Virus record (IMG/VR): IMGVR_UViG_3300020183_000225
Location: 1 to 37,471 of that record
Length of the DNA: 37,471 nucleotides
Strand: one strand, 5' to 3'
Source of the DNA: a virus
In this document: piece by piece, positions 455 to 36,125 of the stretch
Numbering within the stretch: position 1 is the first letter of the stretch
How the letters are laid out: each line of letters begins with the position of its first letter
Program-made: the position numbers and the translations under genes
Notes under the pieces: model-generated
The model's input: only the letters and a program-made list of their open reading frames with translations
Database searches by the model: none
Told to the model about the DNA's origin: nothing

Positions 455-1360
455 CTACGAAGAACTGTCAACAACTTTTTTATGTTTTAACCATTTTCTT
501 ATGGCATTATCTGAAACACCATATTTCTTTCCCACTTGAACATAACTTGTTGTTTTTAGTTCTTCAAGTAATTGTTCTTGTGAGGGTCTATCTCTAACTT
601 TTCTTGACGCATATTTAAAACATTCTTGAGAGCAGTAATCAAAATTAACATTTGAAACTACGCTTTCACATACCAAACATTTTTTATCGCTTTCTGTCAC
701 TTTAACAATAAACACAGGAGGAATTTTACTTTTTTGATCTACCAAGCTTTTTATCAATCTTTTTGCTCTTCTATAATTTCCACCATTTTCTAAATCAAAC
801 TTTGCTAATGCTTGTCTGATATTTGGTGATTCTAAAAGAGCTTTCTGTAATTCATCATCGGATACAGAACGCTTATTACTATTTCTTGCACAAAATGTAT
901 CAGTCTGAGAATGGCAACTAGGACACAACCATCTTAAATTTTCCAATCGATGATCTTTTCTGTCGCCGTTTATGTGGTCTAACTGTAGATTAATTGGTTT
1001 ATTATTCCAAGTATCAATGACTGTGCAACCATCAGCTTCGCATCGGTATTCTTTTAGCTTTCTTTTAATCAGAAGCTTACGAACATATGAAGGCGAAGCA
1101 TTACTATTTTGAGTGAATATAAGTTGTGAGCTTTTTTCTTTTCTTAATCTTTGATCTTCTAATGCTGTTTTATCTTTGGACCACAATTGTCCTGTCCAAT
1201 GGGACGTATCAATTTTATTGTTATTTAGGTATTGTCTTAACCTTGTAGCATTTCCACCACTATCGCAAAGATTTAACTTGCGACACATTTCAGCAGAACT
1301 GAAAACATTATTTGCTAAGTCTTGTATTTCTTCAATTGTTAATCTTTTAAGAATTTTCAT
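455..1360 (-). CDS. Free-standing HNH homing endonuclease in the tRNA cluster
   Basis: 301 aa. The HNH core has L-D-H at residues 127-129, an NLRWLC segment at 141-146 and CPSCH at 146-150; C107, C112, C146 and C149 can form the structural zinc site. A second zinc-finger-like stretch with CLVC and CSQEC follows. The C-terminus carries a helix-turn-helix module beginning RPSQEQL and containing YGVSD, which is also found on the PD-(D/E)XK enzyme at 1993-2655. HNH proteins of this design cut DNA to spread themselves or a neighbouring intron. The gene sits between tRNA-Leu(CAA) and intron-bearing tRNA-Leu(UAA). Its ATG is buried in a 13-bp hairpin stem. Target specificity cannot be read from the sequence. 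Confidence 0.9.
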   Translation of the reverse strand: MKILKRLTIEEIQDLANNVFSSAEMCRKLNLCDSGGNATRLRQYLNNNKIDTSHWTGQLWSKDKTALEDQRLRKEKSSQLIFTQNSNASPSYVRKLLIKRKLKEYRCEADGCTVIDTWNNKPINLQLDHINGDRKDHRLENLRWLCPSCHSQTDTFCARNSNKRSVSDDELQKALLESPNIRQALAKFDLENGGNYRRAKRLIKSLVDQKSKIPPVFIVKVTESDKKCLVCESVVSNVNFDYCSQECFKYASRKVRDRPSQEQLLEELKTTSYVQVGKKYGVSDNAIRKWLKHKKVVDSSS

Positions 1361-3358: not shown

Positions 3359-4852
3359 TCAAGGAGTTTCTTTGCTAATCTTCTTCCAATCACTTTCCCA
3401 AATTGTAACAAGATTAAAGCCATGTGATTTAATTAATCTTGAACGTCTTTGGGTTTCTTTAAGAAGTTGACCAAATGTTTTTTTATTAACTTTATTTATT
3501 TCATTTAGATTAAATTTATTTGGATTTCCATGCCAAAAATCGCCCAAATATTCAATAATTGTATTTGTTTCTGGATCATAACCATCAACTTTAATTATTA
3601 TACCTCCAAGATTAAACACCCTTTCTCTTGTCTCTCCCATTATGTTTGGTATTCCAAGATGATCAAGGTATTCCTGAGATGCTTTTGAAATTGACTTAGA
3701 ACATTTAGGACAATCTTGACCATTTAAATGGTTGGTTGGTGTTTGTTTAAAATCACCATGAATGGGGCAGGTAATGATTACTTTTGTGTGACTATGACTA
3801 TACTCCACTTTTGAATAATCATAAAAGCCATTATGCTTTAATGTGGCTTCTTCAACAAATTGTTGTGTTGTTTTTGTTAATAATTTTCCATAACATTTAG
3901 AACAACCTTTACCTTGTAAATGGCTGCTTGGTGTTTGTTCAAAATCTCCATGAGTAGGGCAGGTAATGATTACTTTTGTTCCGTCACCCTTGTAATCTAC
4001 TTTTGAATAATCATAAAAGCCATTATGTTTTAATGATGCCTCTCCAATAAATTGTTGTGTTGTTTTTTTTAAATTTCTAGAACATTTAGGGCAACCTCTG
4101 CCTTGTAAATGATTAGATGGTGTTTGTTCAAAATCTCCATGAATAGGACAGGTAATAACTACTTTTGTTCCGTTACCCTTATAATCTACTTTAGAATAAC
4201 TGTAAAAACCATTATGCTTTAATGTTGCTTCTTCAACAAATTGTTGTGTTGTTTTGGTTGTTTTTTCTATTATTTTTTCTATACCACATTTAGAACAACC
4301 TTGACCTTCTAAATGGCTGTTTGGTTTTTGTTTAAAATCACCATGAATGGGGCAGGTAATGATTATTTTTGTGTGAGCATTCTTATAATCTACTTTTGAA
4401 TAATTATAAAAGTTATCATGTTTTAATGATGCTTGTTCAATAAATTGTTGTGTTGTTTTTAATAACGTTCCAGAACATTTAGGGCAACCATGACCTTTTA
4501 AATGATGATGTGGTGCTTGTTCAAAATCACCATGAATAGGACAAGTAATGACTACTTTTGTTTTATCATTCTTGTAATCTACTTTTGAATAATCATAAAA
4601 GCCATTATGTTTTAATGATACTTGTTCAATAAATTGTTGTGTTGTTTTGGTTGTTTTTTCTACACCACATTTAGAACAACCGTAACCGTATAAATGGTTG
4701 GTTGGTGTTTGTTCAAAATCACCATGAATAGGACAAGTAATGATTACTTTTGTGTAAGCATTCTTATACTCCACTTTAGAATAATCATAAGAACCATTAT
4801 GTTTTAATGTGGCTTCTGCAATAAATTGTTGTGTTGTTTTTTTTGCTGACAT
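3359..4852 (-). CDS. Six-repeat zinc-ribbon / Vsr-like homing endonuclease
   Basis: 497 aa. Residues 6-390 are six near-identical units of 63-68 aa. Each starts TTQQF, contains LKH..FY.YSKV.Y and ITCP.HGDF, and ends GC.KC (GQDCPKC in the last), so each has three cysteines plus histidines able to bind zinc. Residues 391-497 form a nuclease of the Vsr/EDxHD type: VDGYDPETNTIIEYLGDFWH, then R-R-S-R, then GFNLVTIWESDW. The modular zinc array probably binds DNA and the C-terminal domain nicks or cuts it. This tail resembles the endonuclease remnant inside the split dnaE locus at 27003-27164. The gene has its own strong promoter and is probably a free-standing mobile element. Confidence 0.85.
   Translation of the reverse strand: MSAKKTTQQFIAEATLKHNGSYDYSKVEYKNAYTKVIITCPIHGDFEQTPTNHLYGYGCSKCGVEKTTKTTQQFIEQVSLKHNGFYDYSKVDYKNDKTKVVITCPIHGDFEQAPHHHLKGHGCPKCSGTLLKTTQQFIEQASLKHDNFYNYSKVDYKNAHTKIIITCPIHGDFKQKPNSHLEGQGCSKCGIEKIIEKTTKTTQQFVEEATLKHNGFYSYSKVDYKGNGTKVVITCPIHGDFEQTPSNHLQGRGCPKCSRNLKKTTQQFIGEASLKHNGFYDYSKVDYKGDGTKVIITCPTHGDFEQTPSSHLQGKGCSKCYGKLLTKTTQQFVEEATLKHNGFYDYSKVEYSHSHTKVIITCPIHGDFKQTPTNHLNGQDCPKCSKSISKASQEYLDHLGIPNIMGETRERVFNLGGIIIKVDGYDPETNTIIEYLGDFWHGNPNKFNLNEINKVNKKTFGQLLKETQRRSRLIKSHGFNLVTIWESDWKKISKETP
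3683..4837 (-). repeat. Six tandem coding repeats of about 190 bp
   Basis: The six zinc-ribbon units are also tandem DNA repeats of 189-204 bp. Positions around the ITCPIHGDF segment are almost identical between units at nucleotide level. This suggests recent duplication or gene conversion and makes copy-number change by recombination likely. Confidence 0.9.
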
Positions 4853-16403: not shown

Positions 16404-17972
16404 TTATTTGATTACAGCATAGTTGGTTGTAATTAATGTACCAGCGGCAGAAGTAGAGTTTTGTACTGCACAACGAGTAACTTTTGCAGGGTCAATAATA
16501 CCATTTTTAATCATTGCCTTAATTTGGTCAGTTCTAAAATCGTATCCATCAAACCAATCATTTTCACCAGCCATTTGTACCTTTTGGATAATAAGGTCTG
16601 GTGAAAGTCCTGCATTTAGGGCCATTTGTTTGATTGGCTCTTGACAGGCTCTAACAACAATCTGAGCACCAAGCTTTTCAGATTCGCTGAGTTCATCGTA
16701 TTTGATTGTGTCTGAAATTCTAAGAAGAGCCACACCACCACCGGGAAGAATACCCTCTTGTTGTGCTGATTTAACTGCTTCAAGAGCATCTTCAATACGA
16801 TGCTTCTTCTCAATCATTTCTACTTCTGTTGCTGCTCCTACACGGATAATAGCAATACCAGAAGCCAAACGTGTAATTCTTTCTTGAATTCTCATAGCTT
16901 CATGCATATTATCGGTAGCCATAAGTTCTGCTTTTAGGGATTCAATTCGTTGGTCTACTTCTTCATATGAACCCTTTGCACCTACGATAGTTGTAAGATT
17001 TTTGGCAATCTCAACGGTTTTAGCACGACCGAAATCTTTAATTTTTACATCACCAAGCTTCATACCAGCAGTTGTAGAAATGTAAGTGGCCCCAACAGCA
17101 ACAGCCAAATCACGAAGGATATTTCTACGTTCTTCGCCATATCTTGGAGCCTTTACACCTGCAACTTTCATGGTTCCACGTACACAATTCATAATAAGAG
17201 CAGCAAGTGCTTGACCTTCAATATCATCTGCGATAATAACAAGAGGTCTACCTTCTCTTGCTATAACCTCAAGAACAGGCAACATTTCTGTAACTGTTTC
17301 AAGTTTAAAATCTGTAACAAGAATATAAGGGTCGTCATATTTTACAACACCACGACGTTCATCATTAATAAAAGCAGTTGCAAGATAACCAGAATCAAAG
17401 CGAAAACCTTCAACTACATCAAGAGAAGTTTCAACTGAACGTGCTTCTTCAATCGTAATAGCGCCATCTTTACCTGCTTTATCTACAGCGGTTGCAATAA
17501 GTTTACCGATACCTCTATCATTATTGGCAGAGATTGTAGCGATATCCTCAATCTCTTGTTCAGAAGAAATAGGAACTGCAATCTCCGCAACTTGCTTCAC
17601 AATCTGCTCTGCGGCTTTATCCATGCCCCTCTTCAATTCGATAGGGGAAACACCAGCACTAATATACTTCTGTGCCTCACGGAGCATGGCACGGGCTAAT
17701 ACGATGCTTGTAGTTGTGCCGTCACCAGCTTGAGCGGCAGTTTGTTGAGAAGCTTGCTTGATAATTTGAACGCCAACATTTTGAGTTGGGTCGTCTAAAT
17801 TAATACTGTTCGCAATAGAAACTCCATCTTTTGTTACGATAGGAGCTTTATCTTTTTCATGCAGAATAACGTTTCTGCCTTTTGGGCCTAATGTAGAACA
17901 AACTGTATCTGCGAGAATATCAACGCCAAGGGAAATACCTTTGCGTAATTCCTCATGTGAAGTAATGAGCAT
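16404..17972 (-). CDS. groEL: GroEL-type chaperonin (60 kDa)
   Basis: 522 aa. ATP-site motifs are TLGPKGRNV (28-35) and GDGTTT (83-88); APRYGEERRNILRDLAVAVG in the apical-equatorial region and the C-terminal AGTLITTNYAVIK are intact. The GGM-repeat tail of bacterial GroEL is absent. It folds proteins in an ATP-driven barrel and would need a co-chaperonin; a GroES-like gene lies at 33113-33388. AGAGG precedes the ATG, and a sigma70-like promoter with TTGACT and TATAAT lies just upstream. Phage GroELs are uncommon. The likely clients are capsid or other structural proteins. Confidence 0.97.
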   Translation of the reverse strand: MLITSHEELRKGISLGVDILADTVCSTLGPKGRNVILHEKDKAPIVTKDGVSIANSINLDDPTQNVGVQIIKQASQQTAAQAGDGTTTSIVLARAMLREAQKYISAGVSPIELKRGMDKAAEQIVKQVAEIAVPISSEQEIEDIATISANNDRGIGKLIATAVDKAGKDGAITIEEARSVETSLDVVEGFRFDSGYLATAFINDERRGVVKYDDPYILVTDFKLETVTEMLPVLEVIAREGRPLVIIADDIEGQALAALIMNCVRGTMKVAGVKAPRYGEERRNILRDLAVAVGATYISTTAGMKLGDVKIKDFGRAKTVEIAKNLTTIVGAKGSYEEVDQRIESLKAELMATDNMHEAMRIQERITRLASGIAIIRVGAATEVEMIEKKHRIEDALEAVKSAQQEGILPGGGVALLRISDTIKYDELSESEKLGAQIVVRACQEPIKQMALNAGLSPDLIIQKVQMAGENDWFDGYDFRTDQIKAMIKNGIIDPAKVTRCAVQNSTSAAGTLITTNYAVIK

Positions 17973-19289: not shown

Positions 19290-20000
19290 TTAGAATACTT
19301 CGTCAGCAATTCCAAGTTTTACAGCTTCTTCGGCAGAGAGGTATACATTTACCTTTTTATTAATCATTCTTTTAAGTTGTGGAACGGTCATTTTGGTTTC
19401 CGCTGCAAGAAGTTTAATATAAGTATCTTGAACATGGCGGATCTCTTGCATTTCGTTTTCAAGATTATGGAAAGAACCAGCATTACCGCCAATAACTGAA
19501 TGAATCATAACGCGACAGTTCTTACCAATTCTGCGTTGTCCTTTAGTTCCCGATGCGAGAATGAGGACACCAGCAGACATAACTTTGCCGATTCCAATTG
19601 TATGAATCTCACAAATCTCTTTAGTTACACGCATCATATCGTAAAGAGAAAGCATATCATCTGCATTACCACCGGGAGTTGAGATATAAAGCTCAATAGG
19701 TTCAACAAATGTTTTTTTGTCTCCATCGGGCTTGTCAGGGTCTACAGGCTCTTCAGTTTCTTCAGCGGCAAGTGTAATAAGACCAGCAATAATCTCTGCT
19801 ACCTTTTTCTCTTCAATCTCTCCATAAAGGCCCATAGAGCGAATATCGTTTTCTGCTGCTGCTGCTGGAAGGGCAAACGATACAAGGGATGGTTTGGTGG
19901 ATGATTTCTCTGACTGTCCACCACCCTCTTCTACACCATCTGAATCGTCATGTTCGTGTTCTTCAACTTTCTTTTTCCCGCCAAATAGTCTAAAAGCCAT
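19290..20000 (-). CDS. ClpP-like serine protease
   Basis: 236 aa. A charged, glycine-rich 50-residue N-terminal extension precedes a ClpP fold: ISTPGGNADD (oxyanion loop, 106-115), KVMSAGVLILASG with nucleophile S142, and CRVMIHSVIGG with H167. The catalytic Asp, aligned on the LSAEEAVKLGIAD segment, appears to be N214, so activity may differ from host ClpP. Phage ClpP homologues often serve as prohead maturation proteases, while host-like ones degrade regulators. GGAGAA precedes the ATG and a good promoter lies upstream. Confidence 0.88.
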   Translation of the reverse strand: MAFRLFGGKKKVEEHEHDDSDGVEEGGGQSEKSSTKPSLVSFALPAAAAENDIRSMGLYGEIEEKKVAEIIAGLITLAAEETEEPVDPDKPDGDKKTFVEPIELYISTPGGNADDMLSLYDMMRVTKEICEIHTIGIGKVMSAGVLILASGTKGQRRIGKNCRVMIHSVIGGNAGSFHNLENEMQEIRHVQDTYIKLLAAETKMTVPQLKRMINKKVNVYLSAEEAVKLGIADEVF

Positions 20001-23616: not shown

Positions 23617-24248
23617 TATATCTCCACAATAATTGGTGGGTTTTCTGGGTGATATCTACGATTTAGAGAGGAGCAATTAATGTAAAGTGTATCCTCAAAC
23701 TTATGCGTTCCATATCCTTCGTGAATATGACCAAAAGCAAATATCTTAGGCTTTACACGATTCATAATATGGAACTTTAGAGACTTGCAACCAACGTTTT
23801 CTTGATGGTATGTCAAATCAAGAATACCGTGAGCAGGACCATGTGTAAGAAGAATGTCAGTTCCATCTGGGATTTCATGCCACTTCTTCTTTAGAGTTTC
23901 TTCATTCGCGTTGAAAGCCCAATTATAAAATATAGGTTGATAGGGAGAGCCATAAAAGTTTATCCCTTCAATTTGAGCAGATGAATCCTCTAGATAAGTA
24001 ATGTCTGGATAATCACGAAGTAGCATTTTGGCTTGAAATTGAGATTCATAAAAAAGCCAATCGTGATTACCAGCAATAAATACCTTATGTTTTGCTGGTT
24101 GTTGATTGAACCAATGCAAAAAAGCAGCTACTTCTGGCAGAGTACCTTTAGAAGTTAGGTCACCAGTATGGATAAGGAAATCAGTAGGTTGAATACTGAT
24201 TGCTCCATGTTTATTGTGCGTGTCTGATATAAAAGTAAGTTTAGGCAT
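23616..24248 (-). CDS. Calcineurin-like metallophosphoesterase
   Basis: 210 aa. The full metal-binding set is visible: FISDTHNKHG, IHTGDLTSKG, IAGNHDWLF, LLTHGPAHG and FAFGHIHEGYG. It is of the short phosphodiesterase type. The substrate could be nucleic acid or cyclic nucleotide; neighbours (UV endonuclease, dUTPase) suggest a DNA- or nucleotide-related task. Confidence 0.92.
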   Translation of the reverse strand: MPKLTFISDTHNKHGAISIQPTDFLIHTGDLTSKGTLPEVAAFLHWFNQQPAKHKVFIAGNHDWLFYESQFQAKMLLRDYPDITYLEDSSAQIEGINFYGSPYQPIFYNWAFNANEETLKKKWHEIPDGTDILLTHGPAHGILDLTYHQENVGCKSLKFHIMNRVKPKIFAFGHIHEGYGTHKFEDTLYINCSSLNRRYHPENPPIIVEI

Positions 24249-25161
24249 TTAGTAGCTCACGATATTTGAAAAGGCCAATTTCCTTTAGCTTACATTCTAG
24301 CATAATATCTACATCAAAACCATGCGTATCTGCAACATTTCGATAGCTATCAGAATGTGCTTGTGGAGGACACTTTATTCCTTGCTCTTCGGAACGAGAC
24401 TCTGAATAATGTACAACAGGCTTGATGCTGCCCCACGTAGAAGTCGCCATATGAAGTGCATCGTATACAGACATACCACCAGAGTTAAGTGAATGATGAT
24501 GATAGTCAAAAACAATTGGTATATTAGTTTTTTTATAAATAAGTTCATAAAGCTCGCTGGCATTGTAGAGGCTTGGTCTGTCGTCTACTTCTAGTGTAAA
24601 TCTTCCCTTGATATTATCGGGCAGAGTTTCGTAATTCTTTAGAAACTGGTTTACTGCCGCTTGCTTATCTTTGTACGTAGCACCAACATGAATATTGATT
24701 TTGTTGTAATGTGTATTTGATAGACCCATAATATCCATAATGTCAGCATGGATTTTGAGGTCTGCAATTGTGTTCTTCGTTACTTGCTCGTTTGATGAAG
24801 TAAGCTTGTTGAAAGGACCGGGATGAAATGTAAGTCTATGCCCATTCTTTGTAGCATAATCTCCACACTTCTTTAGAATCTTAGATACTTCATCAAAGTT
24901 TGGCATGTTGTAGATACCATATTCGGATGCCCAAGGAAACATATCAGAGGACATACGATAGAATTTGATATTGTTTTCTTCGTTCCATAGAAGAATCTTG
25001 TAAAGGTCTTGCACATTTTGTAGAGCAAGTTCTGATGCGTATTGTACACCACGTTCATCAAAGGTTCTACGAATCATAGAACGATTGGTGGTAATACGCT
25101 TTTTGGCGGGTAGTTCGGAGAATTGATGAACGATGCAAGCATAACCAAGATTTTGAGACAA
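24241..25161 (-). CDS. uvsE: UV damage endonuclease (UvdE/UvsE family)
   Basis: 306 aa from a TTG at 25161. The family hallmarks are LGYACIVHQF at the N-terminus, DLYKILLWNEENNIKFYRMS, TFHPGP, FTLEVDDRP, VFDYHHHSLN and VHYSES...QAHSDS, giving the His/Glu/Asp metal cluster. It nicks DNA 5' of pyrimidine dimers. The TTG is chosen because AGAGGG stands 7 nt upstream and the conserved region starts right after it; a TTG at 25197 would lie inside the preceding terminator and lacks an SD. The SD is part of the terminator's 3' arm. Confidence 0.92.
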   Translation of the reverse strand: MSQNLGYACIVHQFSELPAKKRITTNRSMIRRTFDERGVQYASELALQNVQDLYKILLWNEENNIKFYRMSSDMFPWASEYGIYNMPNFDEVSKILKKCGDYATKNGHRLTFHPGPFNKLTSSNEQVTKNTIADLKIHADIMDIMGLSNTHYNKINIHVGATYKDKQAAVNQFLKNYETLPDNIKGRFTLEVDDRPSLYNASELYELIYKKTNIPIVFDYHHHSLNSGGMSVYDALHMATSTWGSIKPVVHYSESRSEEQGIKCPPQAHSDSYRNVADTHGFDVDIMLECKLKEIGLFKYRELLNA

Positions 25162-25165
25162 AGAA

Positions 25166-25205
25166 AAACCCTCTTGAGTACCTGTAGTGTATCTCAAGAG
25201 GGTTT
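25166..25205 (-). terminator. Rho-independent terminator after dnaE C-half
   Basis: A perfect 13-bp stem (25193-25205 with 25166-25178) with a 14-nt loop is followed on the minus strand by TTTTTCTTT. It begins 6 bp after the dnaE-C stop. Its 3' arm contains AGAGGG used as SD by the UV endonuclease gene. Confidence 0.88.
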
Positions 25206-25210
25206 AGTGG

Positions 25211-27043
25211 TCAAGCAATCATTTTCAGTTGTGAAGCGATATTTCTCATAGAAAATCCCCAAGAAGAATCATACTCGACTTTCGCCATATAAACACGATT
25301 CTTCAAGACATTTTCATTTGGCTTTACGCCCCAGCAACGAATTTGCACCATTGTATTTGTGTCATCAATTACTTCAAGAACAAGATAATCCTTGCCAGCA
25401 GCACTAGTCTTTCTAACACAGTTTCTGACTACAAACCAAGTAAGTCCAATTTCCTCGTCATATTCTCCAATTGGTGGAACATACTTCTCTTCAAGTCTCT
25501 TAGAGATTTCTGGAGGTAGAACCATAGAAACTGGATATTCGCCTGTTAGATCAGTCAAATACTCAATCTTTTCTTCCAAAGAGAAATCGCCTTCTGGTTT
25601 ATAAGTCTCGATATTCTGATGGAAAATCTTCTTATTCTTTGGACGGTCTACAGCTACAGCAGACCAGAAGTGTTTGGCACCTGTAAATCTGCTATCAATA
25701 AGGCTGTCGCAAGCACCAGCACGAATAAGAACGTCAAGTGCTTTCTTATTTAGCTTAGAATAAGAAACATTCTCATTGAACAAGAAATCCTCAACATTAT
25801 TGAAAGGACGATTATTTAGAATTTGCAACATCGCAGCTTCTCCAAGTCCTTTGATTGAAGTAAGTGGAGGAACAAATTCCTTCCCATCAGCAGTAATTTC
25901 CCAAACCTTTCCAGACTTATTGATATTGAGTGTAGAAATGTTGTATCCAAGAGACTTTACAGTATTGATTGCCTTTTCTTTACGGTTGATTTTATCGTCC
26001 TTGCTTGTATCCTGTTCAGATTCTTTTTCAAGGAACGCACAGAGCCATTCACATTCATAGTAAGTTGCAAGCCAAGCACATTGATATGAAAGGATTGAAT
26101 AGCAAACGGCGTGAGACTTATTGAAACCGTAACCAGAGAAATACTCAAAGGTTTCCCAAAGTTGTTGAGCTTGCTTTTGAGTAATTCCTTTCTCTCCGCA
26201 ACCTTCAATAAACTTCGCATGAATCTTATCTTTTTCTTCAAAGCCTTTTCCAGTTCCTTTTTTGGTAAGTAGTTTACGAAGTTTGTTACCCTCGTCAAGA
26301 GATACGTCCTTACCAAGTTTGTGTGCTAGAAGTGCAATTTGTTCTTGGAAGATAAGGAATCCATAAGTCTCTTTGGTCACTTCTTTTACAAGTGGATGAA
26401 GATATTTGACTTTGTATGGATTTTCCTTTGCATCTGCATATTGTTGGTCTACACCCGCAGAAAGAGGACCGGGACGATAAATAGAAGTAATAGCAGACAA
26501 ATCAATGATATTGTTTGGCTTTACACGCTTACAGAAGTCTTGTGCTCCACGTTCAGTAAATTGGAACACTCCAACCCACTTACCTTCGTGAAATACGTTC
26601 TGATATATCTTTTTATCAGACAGATTCATCTTTTCTGGATGGAGATTATCGTTATAGAACTTCTTGATTTGGTCAAAGGTTGGTTCTTGAATATTGTGGT
26701 GACGCTTCAGAATATGACGAATACAAGATTCAATCATCTTTAGAGTTGCAAGTCCAAGAATATCGAACTTAATAAATCCCATTGGTTCAAGGTGACGAAC
26801 GTTTTGGCCCTCAGACCAAGGAGTTTGACGTACACCATCGGAATTAATTAGCGGCATATAATAATCAAGCTGTTCGCCTACGACCACGCCGCCAGCGTGT
26901 CTACTACAATTTGAAATAATCAAGCTATTAGCTACCAAATTTGGATGGTTGTTTAAAAATTGTTTACTATCAAGTAGATGTTTAATGTCGTAAACTTTAT
27001 CATTACGAAGTTTGGTTATTGCTTTTACTTTTAATGGCTTCAC
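25211..27043 (-). CDS. dnaE: DNA polymerase III alpha subunit, C-terminal half with C-intein
   Basis: 610 aa. Residues 1-45 are a C-terminal intein fragment: VYDIKHLL with an extended loop, then NHPNLVANSLIISN. The terminal Asn is N45 and Ser replaces the usual penultimate His. C46 starts the extein with CSRHAGGVVVGE, the conserved palm motif. The third catalytic Asp is D94 in IKFDILGLATL. Finger and thumb regions, a GYGFNKSHAVCY motif and a C-terminal OB fold follow. The GTG start has an ideal AAGGAG 7 nt upstream. After trans-splicing with the 27157-29175 product it yields a full polymerase of about 1145 aa. A terminator follows. Confidence 0.95.
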   Translation of the reverse strand: MKPLKVKAITKLRNDKVYDIKHLLDSKQFLNNHPNLVANSLIISNCSRHAGGVVVGEQLDYYMPLINSDGVRQTPWSEGQNVRHLEPMGFIKFDILGLATLKMIESCIRHILKRHHNIQEPTFDQIKKFYNDNLHPEKMNLSDKKIYQNVFHEGKWVGVFQFTERGAQDFCKRVKPNNIIDLSAITSIYRPGPLSAGVDQQYADAKENPYKVKYLHPLVKEVTKETYGFLIFQEQIALLAHKLGKDVSLDEGNKLRKLLTKKGTGKGFEEKDKIHAKFIEGCGEKGITQKQAQQLWETFEYFSGYGFNKSHAVCYSILSYQCAWLATYYECEWLCAFLEKESEQDTSKDDKINRKEKAINTVKSLGYNISTLNINKSGKVWEITADGKEFVPPLTSIKGLGEAAMLQILNNRPFNNVEDFLFNENVSYSKLNKKALDVLIRAGACDSLIDSRFTGAKHFWSAVAVDRPKNKKIFHQNIETYKPEGDFSLEEKIEYLTDLTGEYPVSMVLPPEISKRLEEKYVPPIGEYDEEIGLTWFVVRNCVRKTSAAGKDYLVLEVIDDTNTMVQIRCWGVKPNENVLKNRVYMAKVEYDSSWGFSMRNIASQLKMIA

Positions 27044-27164
27044 GTAAAAACTCCTTTATTTGTTCTGTAGTCAGATACTTTAATTCGCTTTCCCATAACG
27101 TCAATACACTAAACCCATTATCTTCAGCACACACTCTTTTGTTGTATGTAAAAGCATTACTCAA
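27003..27164 (-). pseudogene. Remnant of a Vsr-like homing endonuclease between split-intein halves
   Basis: An open frame overlapping the end of dnaE-N and the start of dnaE-C translates to AFTYNKRVCAEDNGFSVLTL followed by WESELKYLTTEQIKEFLREA. The GFSVLTLWESEL segment matches the end of the Vsr-like nuclease at 3359-4852 (GFNLVTIWESDW). Only the C-terminus remains; the catalytic part is lost. Its IKEFL codons supply the SD for dnaE-C. Confidence 0.7.
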
Positions 27165-29175
27165 TACTAAAAAGTAAATCGTTTTCTGTCAATTCTTTTA
27201 CTTGTTTGTATCCATCTTGAGTAAGGACTTTGTGATCTTCTGTTAGTTCGATTGTAGTACCATCTTCAAGTTCTACCTCATAAACTTCTTTTGTTCCTTG
27301 GAAATAAATTTCGTATTCATCATTAAAATGAATGCTATTATCTTCTCCATAATAAGCAATCTTATCACCATCTTCAATATCCACTACGCTTTTATAGCCA
27401 TCATTAGTAAGGATTCCTACCCTGTCAGTAAAACAGGAACGTACTTGACCATACAAAGCATCAATGTGATTTGCAATGTGTGGATATTGTACCAAAAAGT
27501 CCTGTAGAGACTTAGAATATTTCTTTACTTCCTCAAATGTTGGAGTATAGACACCAGCTTTCATACCGTGGTCTTTCTTAGCTAAAGGTATAGCTTCATT
27601 CATCATTTTGGAAGTTACTTCATTTACTTCCTTGAATGGAATATTGTAGAACTTGCTAATATCCTTTACAAGAGACTTTAGCTGTAGAGTATTCCAGTTA
27701 GAAATAGGAACAACAGTAGTATCACCCCATTCTTTGATTAGAACATCCTTGAGTACCATAGGGTCAGAAACGTCATAATCAATATCTGGGAAACCATCTT
27801 GATTCTTCGTCATAAAGCGGCTAAATAGAAGTCCATGCTTTAGAGGGTCAACCTGTGTAATTCCAAGTACATAAGAAACAAGAGAACCAGCAGCAGAGCC
27901 ACGACCAGCACCAACGAGTTGAAGTTGTTGTGCCTTATCGGAAATAGCCTTCATCGTAAGGAAGTATTTACTAAATCCTCGGTCCTCAATAACATCAAGC
28001 TCATATTCAAGCTGATTTACGTAATCACTATTTTCAAGAAGTCCAAGATTACGCAGACCTTCCATACAGAAATGCTTTAGTGCCTCACCAGCAGTAAAGC
28101 CAGCAGGAACAACGAATTCTGGTAGGCGAACGGTAGCATCTGGCATAAACTTTTGGATTCTATTATGAGCGATATTATAAGTCTCTGTAATAGATTTCAT
28201 GACCAAATTATCGTCATATTGAACGGGAGAAAGTGCAGAATACTTCTTGTAAGCATCCCACATTTGGTTACCGTTCTTTGGATATAGTTCATAACCAATT
28301 TGCTCAACGCCACTTGGAAGTTGATTATCTCCCCACTCTGGCTTCCCGCTTCCAAGCCAACCAAGACGCTTATAAAGTTCGCGGTCCTTCCAAGCATCTG
28401 GGTTTGGATAATGTGAATCACAAGTAGACACAAGACCAATTCCAAACTCTTGGTGCATCTTGATAATATAATTGTTTAGAATATGCTGCTCTGGTACGTT
28501 ATTCCATTGAAGTTCACCATACCAACGGTCACCAAAAATAGCAACCATACGCTTTGTCATATCTCGGAAAGAATCAAGAATAGCTTCTTCGCCCTTCTCA
28601 CGATTCTCCCAATAACAACCAGCATAAACACCACCCAAACAAGCGGAAAGGGCAATCACATCTTCGTTATACTTTTCTAGCAGAGCAAGATCAATACGAG
28701 GATAACGATAGAAGTTTTCGTTACGGTAAGACTCTGAAATAAGCTTGAAAACATTATTCAACCCCTTTTGACTCATAGCAAGCAAAACCAAATGACGACG
28801 ACGATTGATTACAGACTTGTTTTCTTTCTTTGCTGCTGCTTCATCTTCAATAGTAGCACCAGAAATAGATTCATCATCTGTTACTTTATTTTTTTTATCA
28901 TCCTTATATCTTTCATACTCTATACGCCAATCCTCTATAGAAGGAATGAAATATGCTTCAACACCAAAAAGTGGCTTAAATTGCTTACCTTCTTGTATCA
29001 TTTTTTTAGCATGAAATACCTGATAACCTAACGAATTCATGTGTCCATGATTTGTGATAGCCATAGCATCCATGCCATTAGAATAAGCATAGTTCATATG
29101 CTCACTTGGCAAAGACATACCATCAAAAATAGAAAACCCATCGTGAGCATGTAACCCAACAAAAGGAATATTCAT
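27157..29175 (-). CDS. dnaE: DNA polymerase III alpha subunit, N-terminal half with N-intein
   Basis: 672 aa. Residues 1-580 are the N-extein: a PHP domain (LHAHDGFSIFDG at 8-19, AITNHGHM, GVEAYF) and the palm, with catalytic D464 and D466 in PDIDYD. Residues 581-672 form a 92-aa N-intein: C581 opens CFTDRVGILTNDG, block A continues VVDIEDGDKI, and block B is VELEDGTTIELTEDHKVLT. The frame stops after LLFSIE. The extein junction is QVRS/CSRHAGG. The PHP metal ligands are close to but not identical with bacterial DnaE. AGAGGTAAGT precedes the ATG. Confidence 0.95.
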   Translation of the reverse strand: MNIPFVGLHAHDGFSIFDGMSLPSEHMNYAYSNGMDAMAITNHGHMNSLGYQVFHAKKMIQEGKQFKPLFGVEAYFIPSIEDWRIEYERYKDDKKNKVTDDESISGATIEDEAAAKKENKSVINRRRHLVLLAMSQKGLNNVFKLISESYRNENFYRYPRIDLALLEKYNEDVIALSACLGGVYAGCYWENREKGEEAILDSFRDMTKRMVAIFGDRWYGELQWNNVPEQHILNNYIIKMHQEFGIGLVSTCDSHYPNPDAWKDRELYKRLGWLGSGKPEWGDNQLPSGVEQIGYELYPKNGNQMWDAYKKYSALSPVQYDDNLVMKSITETYNIAHNRIQKFMPDATVRLPEFVVPAGFTAGEALKHFCMEGLRNLGLLENSDYVNQLEYELDVIEDRGFSKYFLTMKAISDKAQQLQLVGAGRGSAAGSLVSYVLGITQVDPLKHGLLFSRFMTKNQDGFPDIDYDVSDPMVLKDVLIKEWGDTTVVPISNWNTLQLKSLVKDISKFYNIPFKEVNEVTSKMMNEAIPLAKKDHGMKAGVYTPTFEEVKKYSKSLQDFLVQYPHIANHIDALYGQVRSCFTDRVGILTNDGYKSVVDIEDGDKIAYYGEDNSIHFNDEYEIYFQGTKEVYEVELEDGTTIELTEDHKVLTQDGYKQVKELTENDLLFSIE

Positions 29176-33719: not shown

Positions 33720-36125
33720 CTATCCGCAGCGAGAAAACCCACAATCTCCACAGGTTACACAACCATCTTGATAAATAAGATTTGTTGAATTACAATCTGG
33801 ACAAGTCTTCTGGCTGCTTACTCTTGTTCCATCTGGTACGTATTGCTTCAGTACTCTTGCAATAACTCTGGCAAAGGAGAACATATCTGAGCTTTCATCT
33901 TTCTGAAGTTGTTCTACTACGTAATTGATTTTGGCTCCGTGACGAAGTGAAAGAGATAGTAAACGAGTAAATGATGAGTAGTTTGCATTATCAAATACTT
34001 TTACTACGTCTTTTACGGTAAGTTCATCAACGACTAAATCATAACGTGCTTGTGTCTTTGTGAGAGAAGTCTTGATTAGTTTACCCTTCTTTGCAGTTCT
34101 TGGAAGGTCTACAATTTTGTTAGCACCACCAATAACTTCATAAGGTTTACCATCAAGAAGCCCAATAAGAATTGTCCACTTTTCACCCTTTACAGAAACA
34201 TTGTGGATATCACACTCTACTTCAGATGGACGTTTTGGTGCATCATGTTGTGGGAATGTCTCTTTCTTGGTTTCTGTAAGAAGAACACCATCACGGGAAC
34301 CATCAACATAAACTGTAATTCCTTTTAGACCAAGCTTCCAGCCAAGTTGATAAAGTTCAGAAACTGTATCAGCAGAAGTACCCTTTGGAAGATTGATTGT
34401 TGAAGAAATAGAGTGGTCAATGTGTTTTTGAATTACACCTTGAATCTCTACACGACGTTTCCAATCAATCTTATCTGATTCTGTAAAGAAAGAAGGAATT
34501 TGGTCTGTTTCATTCTTAGAAAGATATTCTTGTACATTGTGATGATAAACTCGGTATTCAGCCCAACGGTCACCAGTAACGTCTACGAATGCTGCTGCTT
34601 GGTCTTGCTCATTGTGAGAAAGTTTACGACGACGAATGTAGAAGTTACGGAATACTGGCTCAAGTCCAGAGGAGGTCTGAGACATAATAGAAACAGAACC
34701 AGTAGGAGCATTTGTTAGAATACTAATGTTTCTACGTCCAAATGTCTTGATTGCATTTTGGATTGCAGTTGGAAGAGATTGAATAAATGCATTATCTTTC
34801 TCCTTCTCCCAATCAAACACAGGGAATGAACCACGCTCTTTAGCAAGCCATGTAGATTCTGTATAAGCACTTTCTTTTAGAGTTGAATAGATTCTATCAA
34901 TTACAACGAGAGCTTCTGCGGAATCATAAGCAAGTTTCATGCAAGCAAGAGCATCTGCAAGACCATGAGTGCCAAGACCTGTACGACGACCATTCTTGCA
35001 AGCATCATAAAGTTGTTGCCAAAGAGCCTTTTCATCTTCTGTATTTGCTGCATCAATAATTGAAAGCAACTTCTCAAGTTCCAAATCAATCAAATCATCA
35101 GATAGACGCATAGCGTGTTTAACTACAGTCTCAAAATGTTCGTAATCAAAAGCAGCATTATCTGTAAATGGATTTGTAACAAATGATTTGAGGTTTACTG
35201 AGATAAGTCTACATGAATCATAAGCAGAAAGAGGAATCTCACCACATGGATTTGTAGTAAGAGTTTTAAAGCCTACATCTTTATATGATTCTGCTGGTAG
35301 ATATTTCTCAATATTACCCCACATCAAGAGTCCGGGTTCTGCGGTTCTCGTGGCTGAGTCAACGATGGTTTTCCAAAGTTCTCTGGCTCTAATAGTTTTA
35401 GTGTAAGTAGGATTAGAGGAATCAACAGGAAATCTAAGAGTAAAATCCGCATCCTGTTGGACAGCTTCCATAAAATCGTCTGTGATTCTGATTGAGACAT
35501 TTGCACCTGTTACTTTTGTTAGATCATGCTTCATTTTAGCAAATTTGTCAACATCTGGGTGTCTTACGTCAATAGAAATCATAAGAGCACCACGACGACC
35601 ATTTTGACCAATCATACGACAAACATATGAATAGAAGTCTGCAAACGACCAAGCACCTGTAGTAGTACCAGCAGAATTGTTTACTGCCATACCTTCTGGA
35701 CGTAGATTTGTAATATCAAGACCTACACCACAACGACGCTTGAAAAGGTTAGCAAGATGTTTCCCAGAATCTACAATAGAAGAAACATTATCGTCTGGTG
35801 AAGCAACTACAACACAATTTGAAAGTGATGCGTTTACAAAACTATTTCCAATACCAAACATTGGAGAACCTTGTGGAACAATGTACTTAAAATCTTTGAT
35901 ATATGAATAAATTTGTTCTTCTGATAGGGCAGACTTTCCACCATATCGTGCTTCAATACGAGCGAACTCTTTAGCCAAACGACGATGTAAGTCATTTGGG
36001 GTAAGCTCTATATATAAGCCTGTAGTATCTTTTAGGGCGTATTTGGTGGTAAACACGTTTGCTGATAATTCATCACCATTAAAATATTGTAAACTTGCCT
36101 TGTTTACTTGTTCTCTAGTGTACAT
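33720..36125 (-). CDS. nrdJ: Class II (adenosylcobalamin) ribonucleotide reductase
   Basis: 801 aa. The RNR core includes NASLSNCVVVASPDD (redox Cys), FKRRCGVGLDITNLRPEG, the active-site TTNPCGEIPLSAYDSC with Cys and Glu, and NAPTGSVSIMSQTSSGLEPVF. The C-terminal CPDC...CVTCGDCGFSRC zinc ribbon is typical of NrdJ. It reduces ribonucleotides to deoxyribonucleotides and needs host cobalamin but not oxygen or a second subunit. It overlaps the helicase gene by 22 bp. No intein or intron is present. Confidence 0.96.
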   Translation of the reverse strand: MYTREQVNKASLQYFNGDELSANVFTTKYALKDTTGLYIELTPNDLHRRLAKEFARIEARYGGKSALSEEQIYSYIKDFKYIVPQGSPMFGIGNSFVNASLSNCVVVASPDDNVSSIVDSGKHLANLFKRRCGVGLDITNLRPEGMAVNNSAGTTTGAWSFADFYSYVCRMIGQNGRRGALMISIDVRHPDVDKFAKMKHDLTKVTGANVSIRITDDFMEAVQQDADFTLRFPVDSSNPTYTKTIRARELWKTIVDSATRTAEPGLLMWGNIEKYLPAESYKDVGFKTLTTNPCGEIPLSAYDSCRLISVNLKSFVTNPFTDNAAFDYEHFETVVKHAMRLSDDLIDLELEKLLSIIDAANTEDEKALWQQLYDACKNGRRTGLGTHGLADALACMKLAYDSAEALVVIDRIYSTLKESAYTESTWLAKERGSFPVFDWEKEKDNAFIQSLPTAIQNAIKTFGRRNISILTNAPTGSVSIMSQTSSGLEPVFRNFYIRRRKLSHNEQDQAAAFVDVTGDRWAEYRVYHHNVQEYLSKNETDQIPSFFTESDKIDWKRRVEIQGVIQKHIDHSISSTINLPKGTSADTVSELYQLGWKLGLKGITVYVDGSRDGVLLTETKKETFPQHDAPKRPSEVECDIHNVSVKGEKWTILIGLLDGKPYEVIGGANKIVDLPRTAKKGKLIKTSLTKTQARYDLVVDELTVKDVVKVFDNANYSSFTRLLSLSLRHGAKINYVVEQLQKDESSDMFSFARVIARVLKQYVPDGTRVSSQKTCPDCNSTNLIYQDGCVTCGDCGFSRCG

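What the first reader, a model, noticed from the sequence alone, without database searches (positions are those of the whole stretch)
25211..29175. DNA polymerase III alpha split by a trans-splicing intein at the HAGG site
Two adjacent same-strand genes end and begin with matching intein halves: a 92-aa N-intein after residue 580 of the first and a 45-aa C-intein opening the second. The junction QVRS/CSRHAGG falls between the two parts of the polymerase active site (D464/D466 and D94 of the C half). Cyanobacterial DnaE split inteins are known to sit at a different, later site near the FNKSH motif, which is uninterrupted here. This would be a separate acquisition of a split intein by a replicase. 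The C-intein has a Ser in place of the penultimate His and an enlarged loop, so splicing kinetics may be unusual.
Basis: partly seen in the sequence, partly recalled or inferred. Interest (0 to 1): 0.9.

Follow-up and report, generated by a model that had tools for sequence, protein, structure and literature searches.

The report
Phage polymerase split by trans-splicing intein
An uncultured phage carries its DNA polymerase III gene as two separate genes whose protein products are almost certainly stitched together by a split intein inserted at the polymerase's catalytic HAGG motif, a worn-down copy of a mobile element that in related phages still has its DNA-cutting gene and in distant ones has broken the same polymerase into four or more genes.

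Summary
Genes 29175-27157 and 27043-25211 (minus strand) encode the two parts of a DnaE-type polymerase. A 92-aa N-intein follows Ser580, and a 45-aa C-intein precedes Cys-Ser-Arg-His-Ala-Gly-Gly. In 78 relatives the two exteins are fused: 75 directly (residue 580 to residue 1), three with one extra codon. The splice point is therefore known exactly.

The 113-bp gap holds the last ~40 codons of a Vsr-like homing endonuclease (profile E 8e-7). Relative L047 and two distant phages carry that endonuclease intact between the same intein halves. The locus is therefore a 'fractured gene' (the arrangement named by Dassa et al. 2009) whose endonuclease has eroded. The surviving tail contains the ribosome-binding site of the second gene.

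Carriers are scattered on the DnaE tree (at least 4 gains or losses), as expected of a mobile element. The penultimate Ser is a family trait, also reported for cyanobacterial DnaE inteins, so it is not a sign of poor splicing. In four distant phages the same polymerase is broken further, into up to four or more genes.

Splicing itself is inferred, not shown. Prior description of this site could not be checked (Dassa 2009 not readable here).

The parts
27436..29175 (-). N-extein of DNA polymerase III alpha (PHP domain and first part of the palm, residues 1-580, with D464/D466)
   Evidence: Pfam PHP and DNA_pol3_alpha; fused to the C-extein in one frame in 78 relatives
27160..27435 (-). N-intein, 92 aa, Cys1, block B motif TEDH, stop codon at 27157-27159
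   Evidence: TIGR01445 above cut-off; 64-75% identical at the same site in L047, L094, L095
27024..27146 (-). relic of the C-terminal ~40 codons of a Vsr-like homing endonuclease (open frame 27188-27006)
   Evidence: profile of the L047, G005 and G007 endonucleases hits it with E 8e-7, one of only two hits in the six-frame window; blastp to L047 endonuclease E 2e-6, better than all 2000 shuffles, and only this frame
27051..27056 (-). Shine-Dalgarno AAGGAG of the second gene, inside the endonuclease relic
   Evidence: sequence, 7 nt before GTG 27043
26909..27043 (-). C-intein, 45 aa, VYDI block F, enlarged loop, ends Ser-Asn
   Evidence: 64% identical in L047 and L098; same loop and ISN end in L144, L145, L147, L148; not hit by TIGR01443
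25211..26908 (-). C-extein of DNA polymerase III alpha from Cys-Ser-Arg-His-Ala-Gly-Gly (D94 of the C gene, intact FNKSH)
   Evidence: Pfam finger, HHH_6 and DNA_pol3_alpha; PDB DnaE matches

Best explanation
The locus is a DnaE-type phage polymerase gene invaded at codon 580/581 (RS|CSRHAGG) by a mobile 'fractured-gene' element: N-intein with stop codon, a free-standing Vsr-like homing endonuclease gene, then a C-intein with its own start codon. The two precursors should associate and splice in trans, giving a 1145-aa polymerase. Neither precursor alone has the complete catalytic Asp triad, so assembly is needed for activity. In this phage the endonuclease has been deleted except for its last ~40 codons, which carry the ribosome-binding site and overlap the start of the second gene. 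The element can therefore probably no longer home by itself but cannot easily be lost, because the polymerase depends on splicing. Shown: the architecture, the exact empty site, conservation, patchy distribution, and intact-endonuclease relatives. Inferred: splicing, homing, loss of mobility, and dependence of the phage on the product.
For: Intein and polymerase models. The fused intein halves match solved DnaE and gp41-1 inteins along both parts. Exact empty sites in 78 relatives. Same insertion with an intact 317-aa endonuclease between the halves in L047, its first codons after the N-intein in L094 and L095, and an intact homolog at this site in G005 and G007. Relic in the window E 8e-7. 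Carriers need at least 4 changes on the tree, and the window sits among intein-free relatives with 99-100% support. Intein protein identity stays 64-75% while fourfold sites are near random (29-38% for the N-intein), so the intein is under purifying selection. Catalytic D464/D466 and D94 lie on opposite sides of the split.
Against: No splicing experiment. The C-intein is not recognised by the general C-intein model, although its position, Ser-Asn|Cys end and conservation fit. The window is a 37-kb fragment, so a second intact dnaE cannot be excluded; four relatives with 162-205 kb contigs each have only one.
Confidence: 0.93

Rival explanations
1. The two products form a working two-subunit polymerase held together by the intein halves, with little or no ligation.
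For: The C-intein is divergent and not detected by TIGR01443. Split proteins can work without a peptide bond.
Against: All residues needed for ligation are kept (Cys1, TxDH, Asn, Cys+1), and the Asn|Cys junction is invariant in every family member seen, including those at ~40% extein identity. A non-splicing scaffold would not need this.
Confidence: 0.04
2. The gene is a decaying pseudogene: an intein broken by deletion together with its endonuclease, no longer functional.
For: The endonuclease is truncated to ~40 codons.
Against: Both frames are open, and intein and extein are under purifying selection. Relatives with an intact endonuclease are split in the same way, so the split predates the deletion. 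The second gene has a good ribosome-binding site.
Confidence: 0.02
3. Assembly artefact: one contiguous intein-containing gene broken by sequence errors.
For: The window is metagenomic.
Against: Record L003 has the same sequence through the junction. The stop, gap and new start recur in independent contigs.
Confidence: 0.01

Closest known systems
'Fractured genes' of phage metagenomes (Dassa et al. 2009, NAR, doi 10.1093/nar/gkp095; cited in PMC12350094 and PMC6892783; the paper itself was not readable here, so its content is from memory)
   Same: Enzyme gene broken by a split intein with a free-standing Vsr-like homing endonuclease in between; present in L047, G005 and G007. Dassa also reported control elements (memory), and L047 has a hairpin over the endonuclease start.
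   Different: In the window the endonuclease is reduced to a ~40-codon tail. The host gene is DnaE cut at its catalytic HAGG motif; whether DnaE was among the eight enzyme types of Dassa could not be checked.
Cyanobacterial split DnaE inteins (Npu, Ssp)
   Same: Same host protein family, trans-splicing, similar sizes of the halves, Ser or Ala in place of the penultimate His (PMC5874633).
   Different: Different insertion site: the cyanobacterial site near FNKSH is intact here. Weak sequence similarity only, a longer C-intein, a phage host, and an endonuclease or its relic between the halves.
Split PolB intein of Pseudomonas phage MIJ3 (PMC6892783)
   Same: A phage replicative polymerase split by a split intein with an endonuclease gene between the halves.
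   Different: Family B polymerase, HNH endonuclease, different site.
Inteins in named phages (Salmonella S16-like UvsW helicase, Salicola SCTP-2)
   Same: Best named-phage matches to the N-intein, up to 39.6% identity.
   Different: Other host genes; none of the 20 listed matches is annotated as dnaE.

Membership tests
Split intein | N-intein begins with a nucleophile and carries block A and block B (TxxH) | tested here: met
   Cys1, TEDH; TIGR01445 above cut-off
Split intein | C-intein with block F and block G, terminal Asn, Cys/Ser/Thr at +1 | tested here: met
   VYDI, Ser-Asn|Cys at the site defined by empty relatives; TIGR01443 itself does not score
Split intein | the two halves are separate genes | tested here: met
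   stop 27157-27159, 113-bp gap, new start GTG 27043 with Shine-Dalgarno
Split intein | splicing in trans | not testable with these tools
   needs expression of both halves
Fractured gene (Dassa 2009) | conserved enzyme gene broken by a split intein | tested here: met
Fractured gene (Dassa 2009) | free-standing endonuclease gene between the halves | tested here: not met
   window has only a ~40-codon relic; met in L047, G005 and G007, so the window is a derived, endonuclease-less descendant
Vsr-like homing endonuclease (relic and L047 gene) | Vsr/EDxHD-type nuclease domain | tested here: inconclusive
   L047 gene: Pfam MTES_1575, DUF559 and weak Vsr, PHROG homing endonuclease, 40% to an annotated VSR endonuclease. 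The relic lacks the catalytic part.
Cyanobacterial DnaE split intein | insertion next to FNKSH | tested here: not met
   FNKSH uninterrupted, insertion at HAGG

The most novel reading that the evidence does not exclude
Phage DnaE is a hot spot for split inteins, and in some phages it is shattered: it is made as four or more separate proteins joined by three or four different trans-splicing reactions, some with cis-inteins in addition, at sites in or next to the catalytic motifs (SA|CLGG, GRG|SGAGS, KKK|SLPDID, PDID|SD, RS|CxRHAGG, FNQ|SHA). The window shows the simplest stage, one fracture whose endonuclease has been lost.
Probability: 0.85. Interest if true: 0.75.

Novelty: new member of a known kind. 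Interest (0 to 1): 0.62.

Why it matters
A replicase that must be assembled by protein trans-splicing at its catalytic palm ties phage replication to a selfish element. The set of phages found here covers the expected life cycle in one gene: empty site, element with endonuclease, element with eroded endonuclease, and several elements piled up in one polymerase. It makes homing, domestication and the origin of natural split inteins testable. The C-inteins form a distinct, apparently uncharacterised group with a longer loop, and distant phages carry several different split inteins in one protein, which are candidates for mutually compatible splicing tools.

Tried and rejected
Cellular origin of the site: a genome-wide pattern for His-Asn|[Cys/Ser/Thr]-x-x-His-Ala-[Gly/Ala]-Gly gave 7 hits, none of which reads as a dnaE intein. 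That pattern would miss inteins ending Ser-Asn.

C-intein by general models: TIGR01443 and Pfam did not score it alone; a PDB search with the C-intein profile gave only chance-like PAS-domain matches. It was accepted on position, junction and conservation, and because the fused halves match known inteins along both parts.

Horizontal transfer by silent-site comparison: fourfold sites are saturated, so only the patchy tree is used.

Leader hairpin over the endonuclease start: strong in L047 (z -4.8), not in L094 or L095, absent in the window, so not general.

Insertion in MT836180 (L083): in-frame alignment gap only, no intein.

Dassa 2009 and Caspi 2003 were not held in the library.

Full report
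Observation. The N gene (29175-27157, minus strand, 672 aa) and the C gene (27043-25211, 610 aa, GTG start) match DNA polymerase III alpha over consecutive parts: PHP and the first part of the palm in the N gene; the end of the palm, finger and helix-hairpin-helix in the C gene. From Cys581 to the stop the N gene matches the NCBIfam N-intein model above its cut-off. The C gene starts with 45 residues ending Ser-Asn before Cys-Ser-Arg-His-Ala-Gly-Gly. Catalytic Asp residues fall on both sides of the split (D464/D466 and D94), FNKSH is intact, and the joined extein is 1145 aa.

Empty sites. A scan of IMG/VR gave 80 relatives at 60-100% identity. Of the loci that cover the junction, 78 have the two exteins in one frame without the insertion: in 75 residue 580 is followed directly by residue 1 of the C-extein, and in three near-identical contigs (L078-L080) there is one extra codon. 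L003 and L047 carry an insertion. This fixes the splice point and shows that the insertion is an addition to an ordinary gene. L003 is a near-identical separate record with the same gap.

The gap. The 113 bp between the genes belong to an open frame, 27188-27006, reading ...YNKRVCAEDNGFSVLTLWESELKYLTTEQIKEFLREAIKS.... In L047 the same two intein halves (75% and 64% identical) flank a 317-aa gene whose C-terminus aligns to this frame. A profile from the endonucleases at this site in L047, G005 and G007 finds two places in the six-frame window: a CapR-repeat/Vsr-like gene at 4870-3362 and this relic, E 8e-7. The L047 gene matches phage homing endonuclease families and a phage gene annotated VSR endonuclease. 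L094 and L095 show the endonuclease start codons just after the N-intein before their contigs end. In L047, G007 and the window the end of the endonuclease frame overlaps the start of the C gene in another frame, and in the window the Shine-Dalgarno AAGGAG of the C gene lies inside the relic. This may be why the tail was kept (inference).

Mobility. On a tree of 45 DnaE proteins the five carriers need at least four gains or losses, and the window lies with 99-100% support within intein-free relatives. Its sister L004 (85% identical) lacks this insertion but has a different split intein with an endonuclease-like gene at SA|CLGG in the PHP region. Fourfold sites are saturated while intein protein identity stays at 64-75%, so the intein is under purifying selection.

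C-intein peculiarities. The Ser-Asn end and the longer loop occur in every member seen, including DnaE proteins about 40% identical to the window. Cyanobacterial DnaE inteins are reported to have Ser or Ala at the same place (PMC5874633). No general C-intein model hits it alone, but the fused halves match solved DnaE and gp41-1 inteins over both parts.

Beyond the window. A DNA pattern for Asn|Cys before HA[G/A]G found four distant phages with the same insertion. Their dnaE genes are broken at further points. G007 has four dnaE genes joined at SA|CLGG, HR|TSWPDID and RS|CGRHAGG, with endonuclease genes in two of the gaps. G006 has four genes joined at GRG|SGAGS, KS|CGRHAGG and FNQ|SHA plus a predicted cis-intein before SLPDID, and its first piece lies about 15.6 kb from the second. 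G008 has four genes on the contig and an N-intein at the end of the fourth, so a fifth is expected; a predicted cis-intein interrupts the catalytic PDID|SD motif. Joined exteins of G007 and G006 align along the window protein with no gap or overlap at the junctions, as do those of G008 over its available part. Joined intein halves score above the NCBIfam N- and C-intein cut-offs at the SA, GRG, HR and FN sites, and above the N-intein cut-off at HAGG; the predicted cis-intein of G006 was not recognised by these models.

Comparison with the known. The arrangement is that named 'fractured genes' by Dassa et al. 2009, known here only from memory and citations. A phage PolB split in this way, with an HNH endonuclease, is described for MIJ3. 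No named phage among the listed matches has this intein in dnaE, and no cellular dnaE with a His-Asn intein at this exact site was found. I therefore call the window a new member of a known kind, derived by loss of the endonuclease. The multiply broken relatives would be a new variant.

Limits. Splicing and homing are inferred. The window is a fragment, so a second dnaE is not excluded; four relatives with contigs of 162-205 kb hold one dnaE each and no family B polymerase, three of them with a weak PolA-like match.

Noticed in passing
L180, L181 (G006, IMGVR_UViG_3300028826_000180), L182 (G008, 3300043411_002890), L183 (G005, 3300025767_000073), L184 (G007, 3300025078_000002): DnaE encoded by three to five genes separated by split inteins at up to four sites, with predicted cis-inteins in G006 and G008; in G008 only the six residues SLPDID lie between two inteins.
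   Followed up: partly
L004:3100-4510 (IMGVR_UViG_3300009184_004284): Sister of the window polymerase fractured at a different site, SA|CLGG in the PHP region, with a separate endonuclease-like gene (3387-4388) between the intein halves.
   Followed up: partly
L088:4002-7406 (IMGVR_UViG_3300018031_000005): Contiguous large intein, probably with an endonuclease domain, in another phage dnaE after LRKA.
   Followed up: no
window 3359-4852 (-): Repeated CapR/DUF4379/DUF723-like domains followed by a Vsr-like C-terminus, matching the homing endonuclease outgroup described in PMC12350094.
   Followed up: partly
window 455-1360 (-): HNH endonuclease gene next to a cluster of phage tRNA genes.
   Followed up: no
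window 16404-17972, 19290-20000, 24241-25197, 33720-36125 (-): Phage-encoded GroEL-like chaperonin, ClpP-like protease, UvdE UV endonuclease and an intein-free ribonucleotide reductase.
   Followed up: no
L047:5012-5075: Strong hairpin (z -4.8) that pairs the Shine-Dalgarno and start codon of the endonuclease gene, likely limiting its translation; not seen in L094 or L095.
   Followed up: partly
G011, G013, G014 (large relatives of the window phage): PolA-like match in a 380-430 aa open frame besides DnaE.
   Followed up: no
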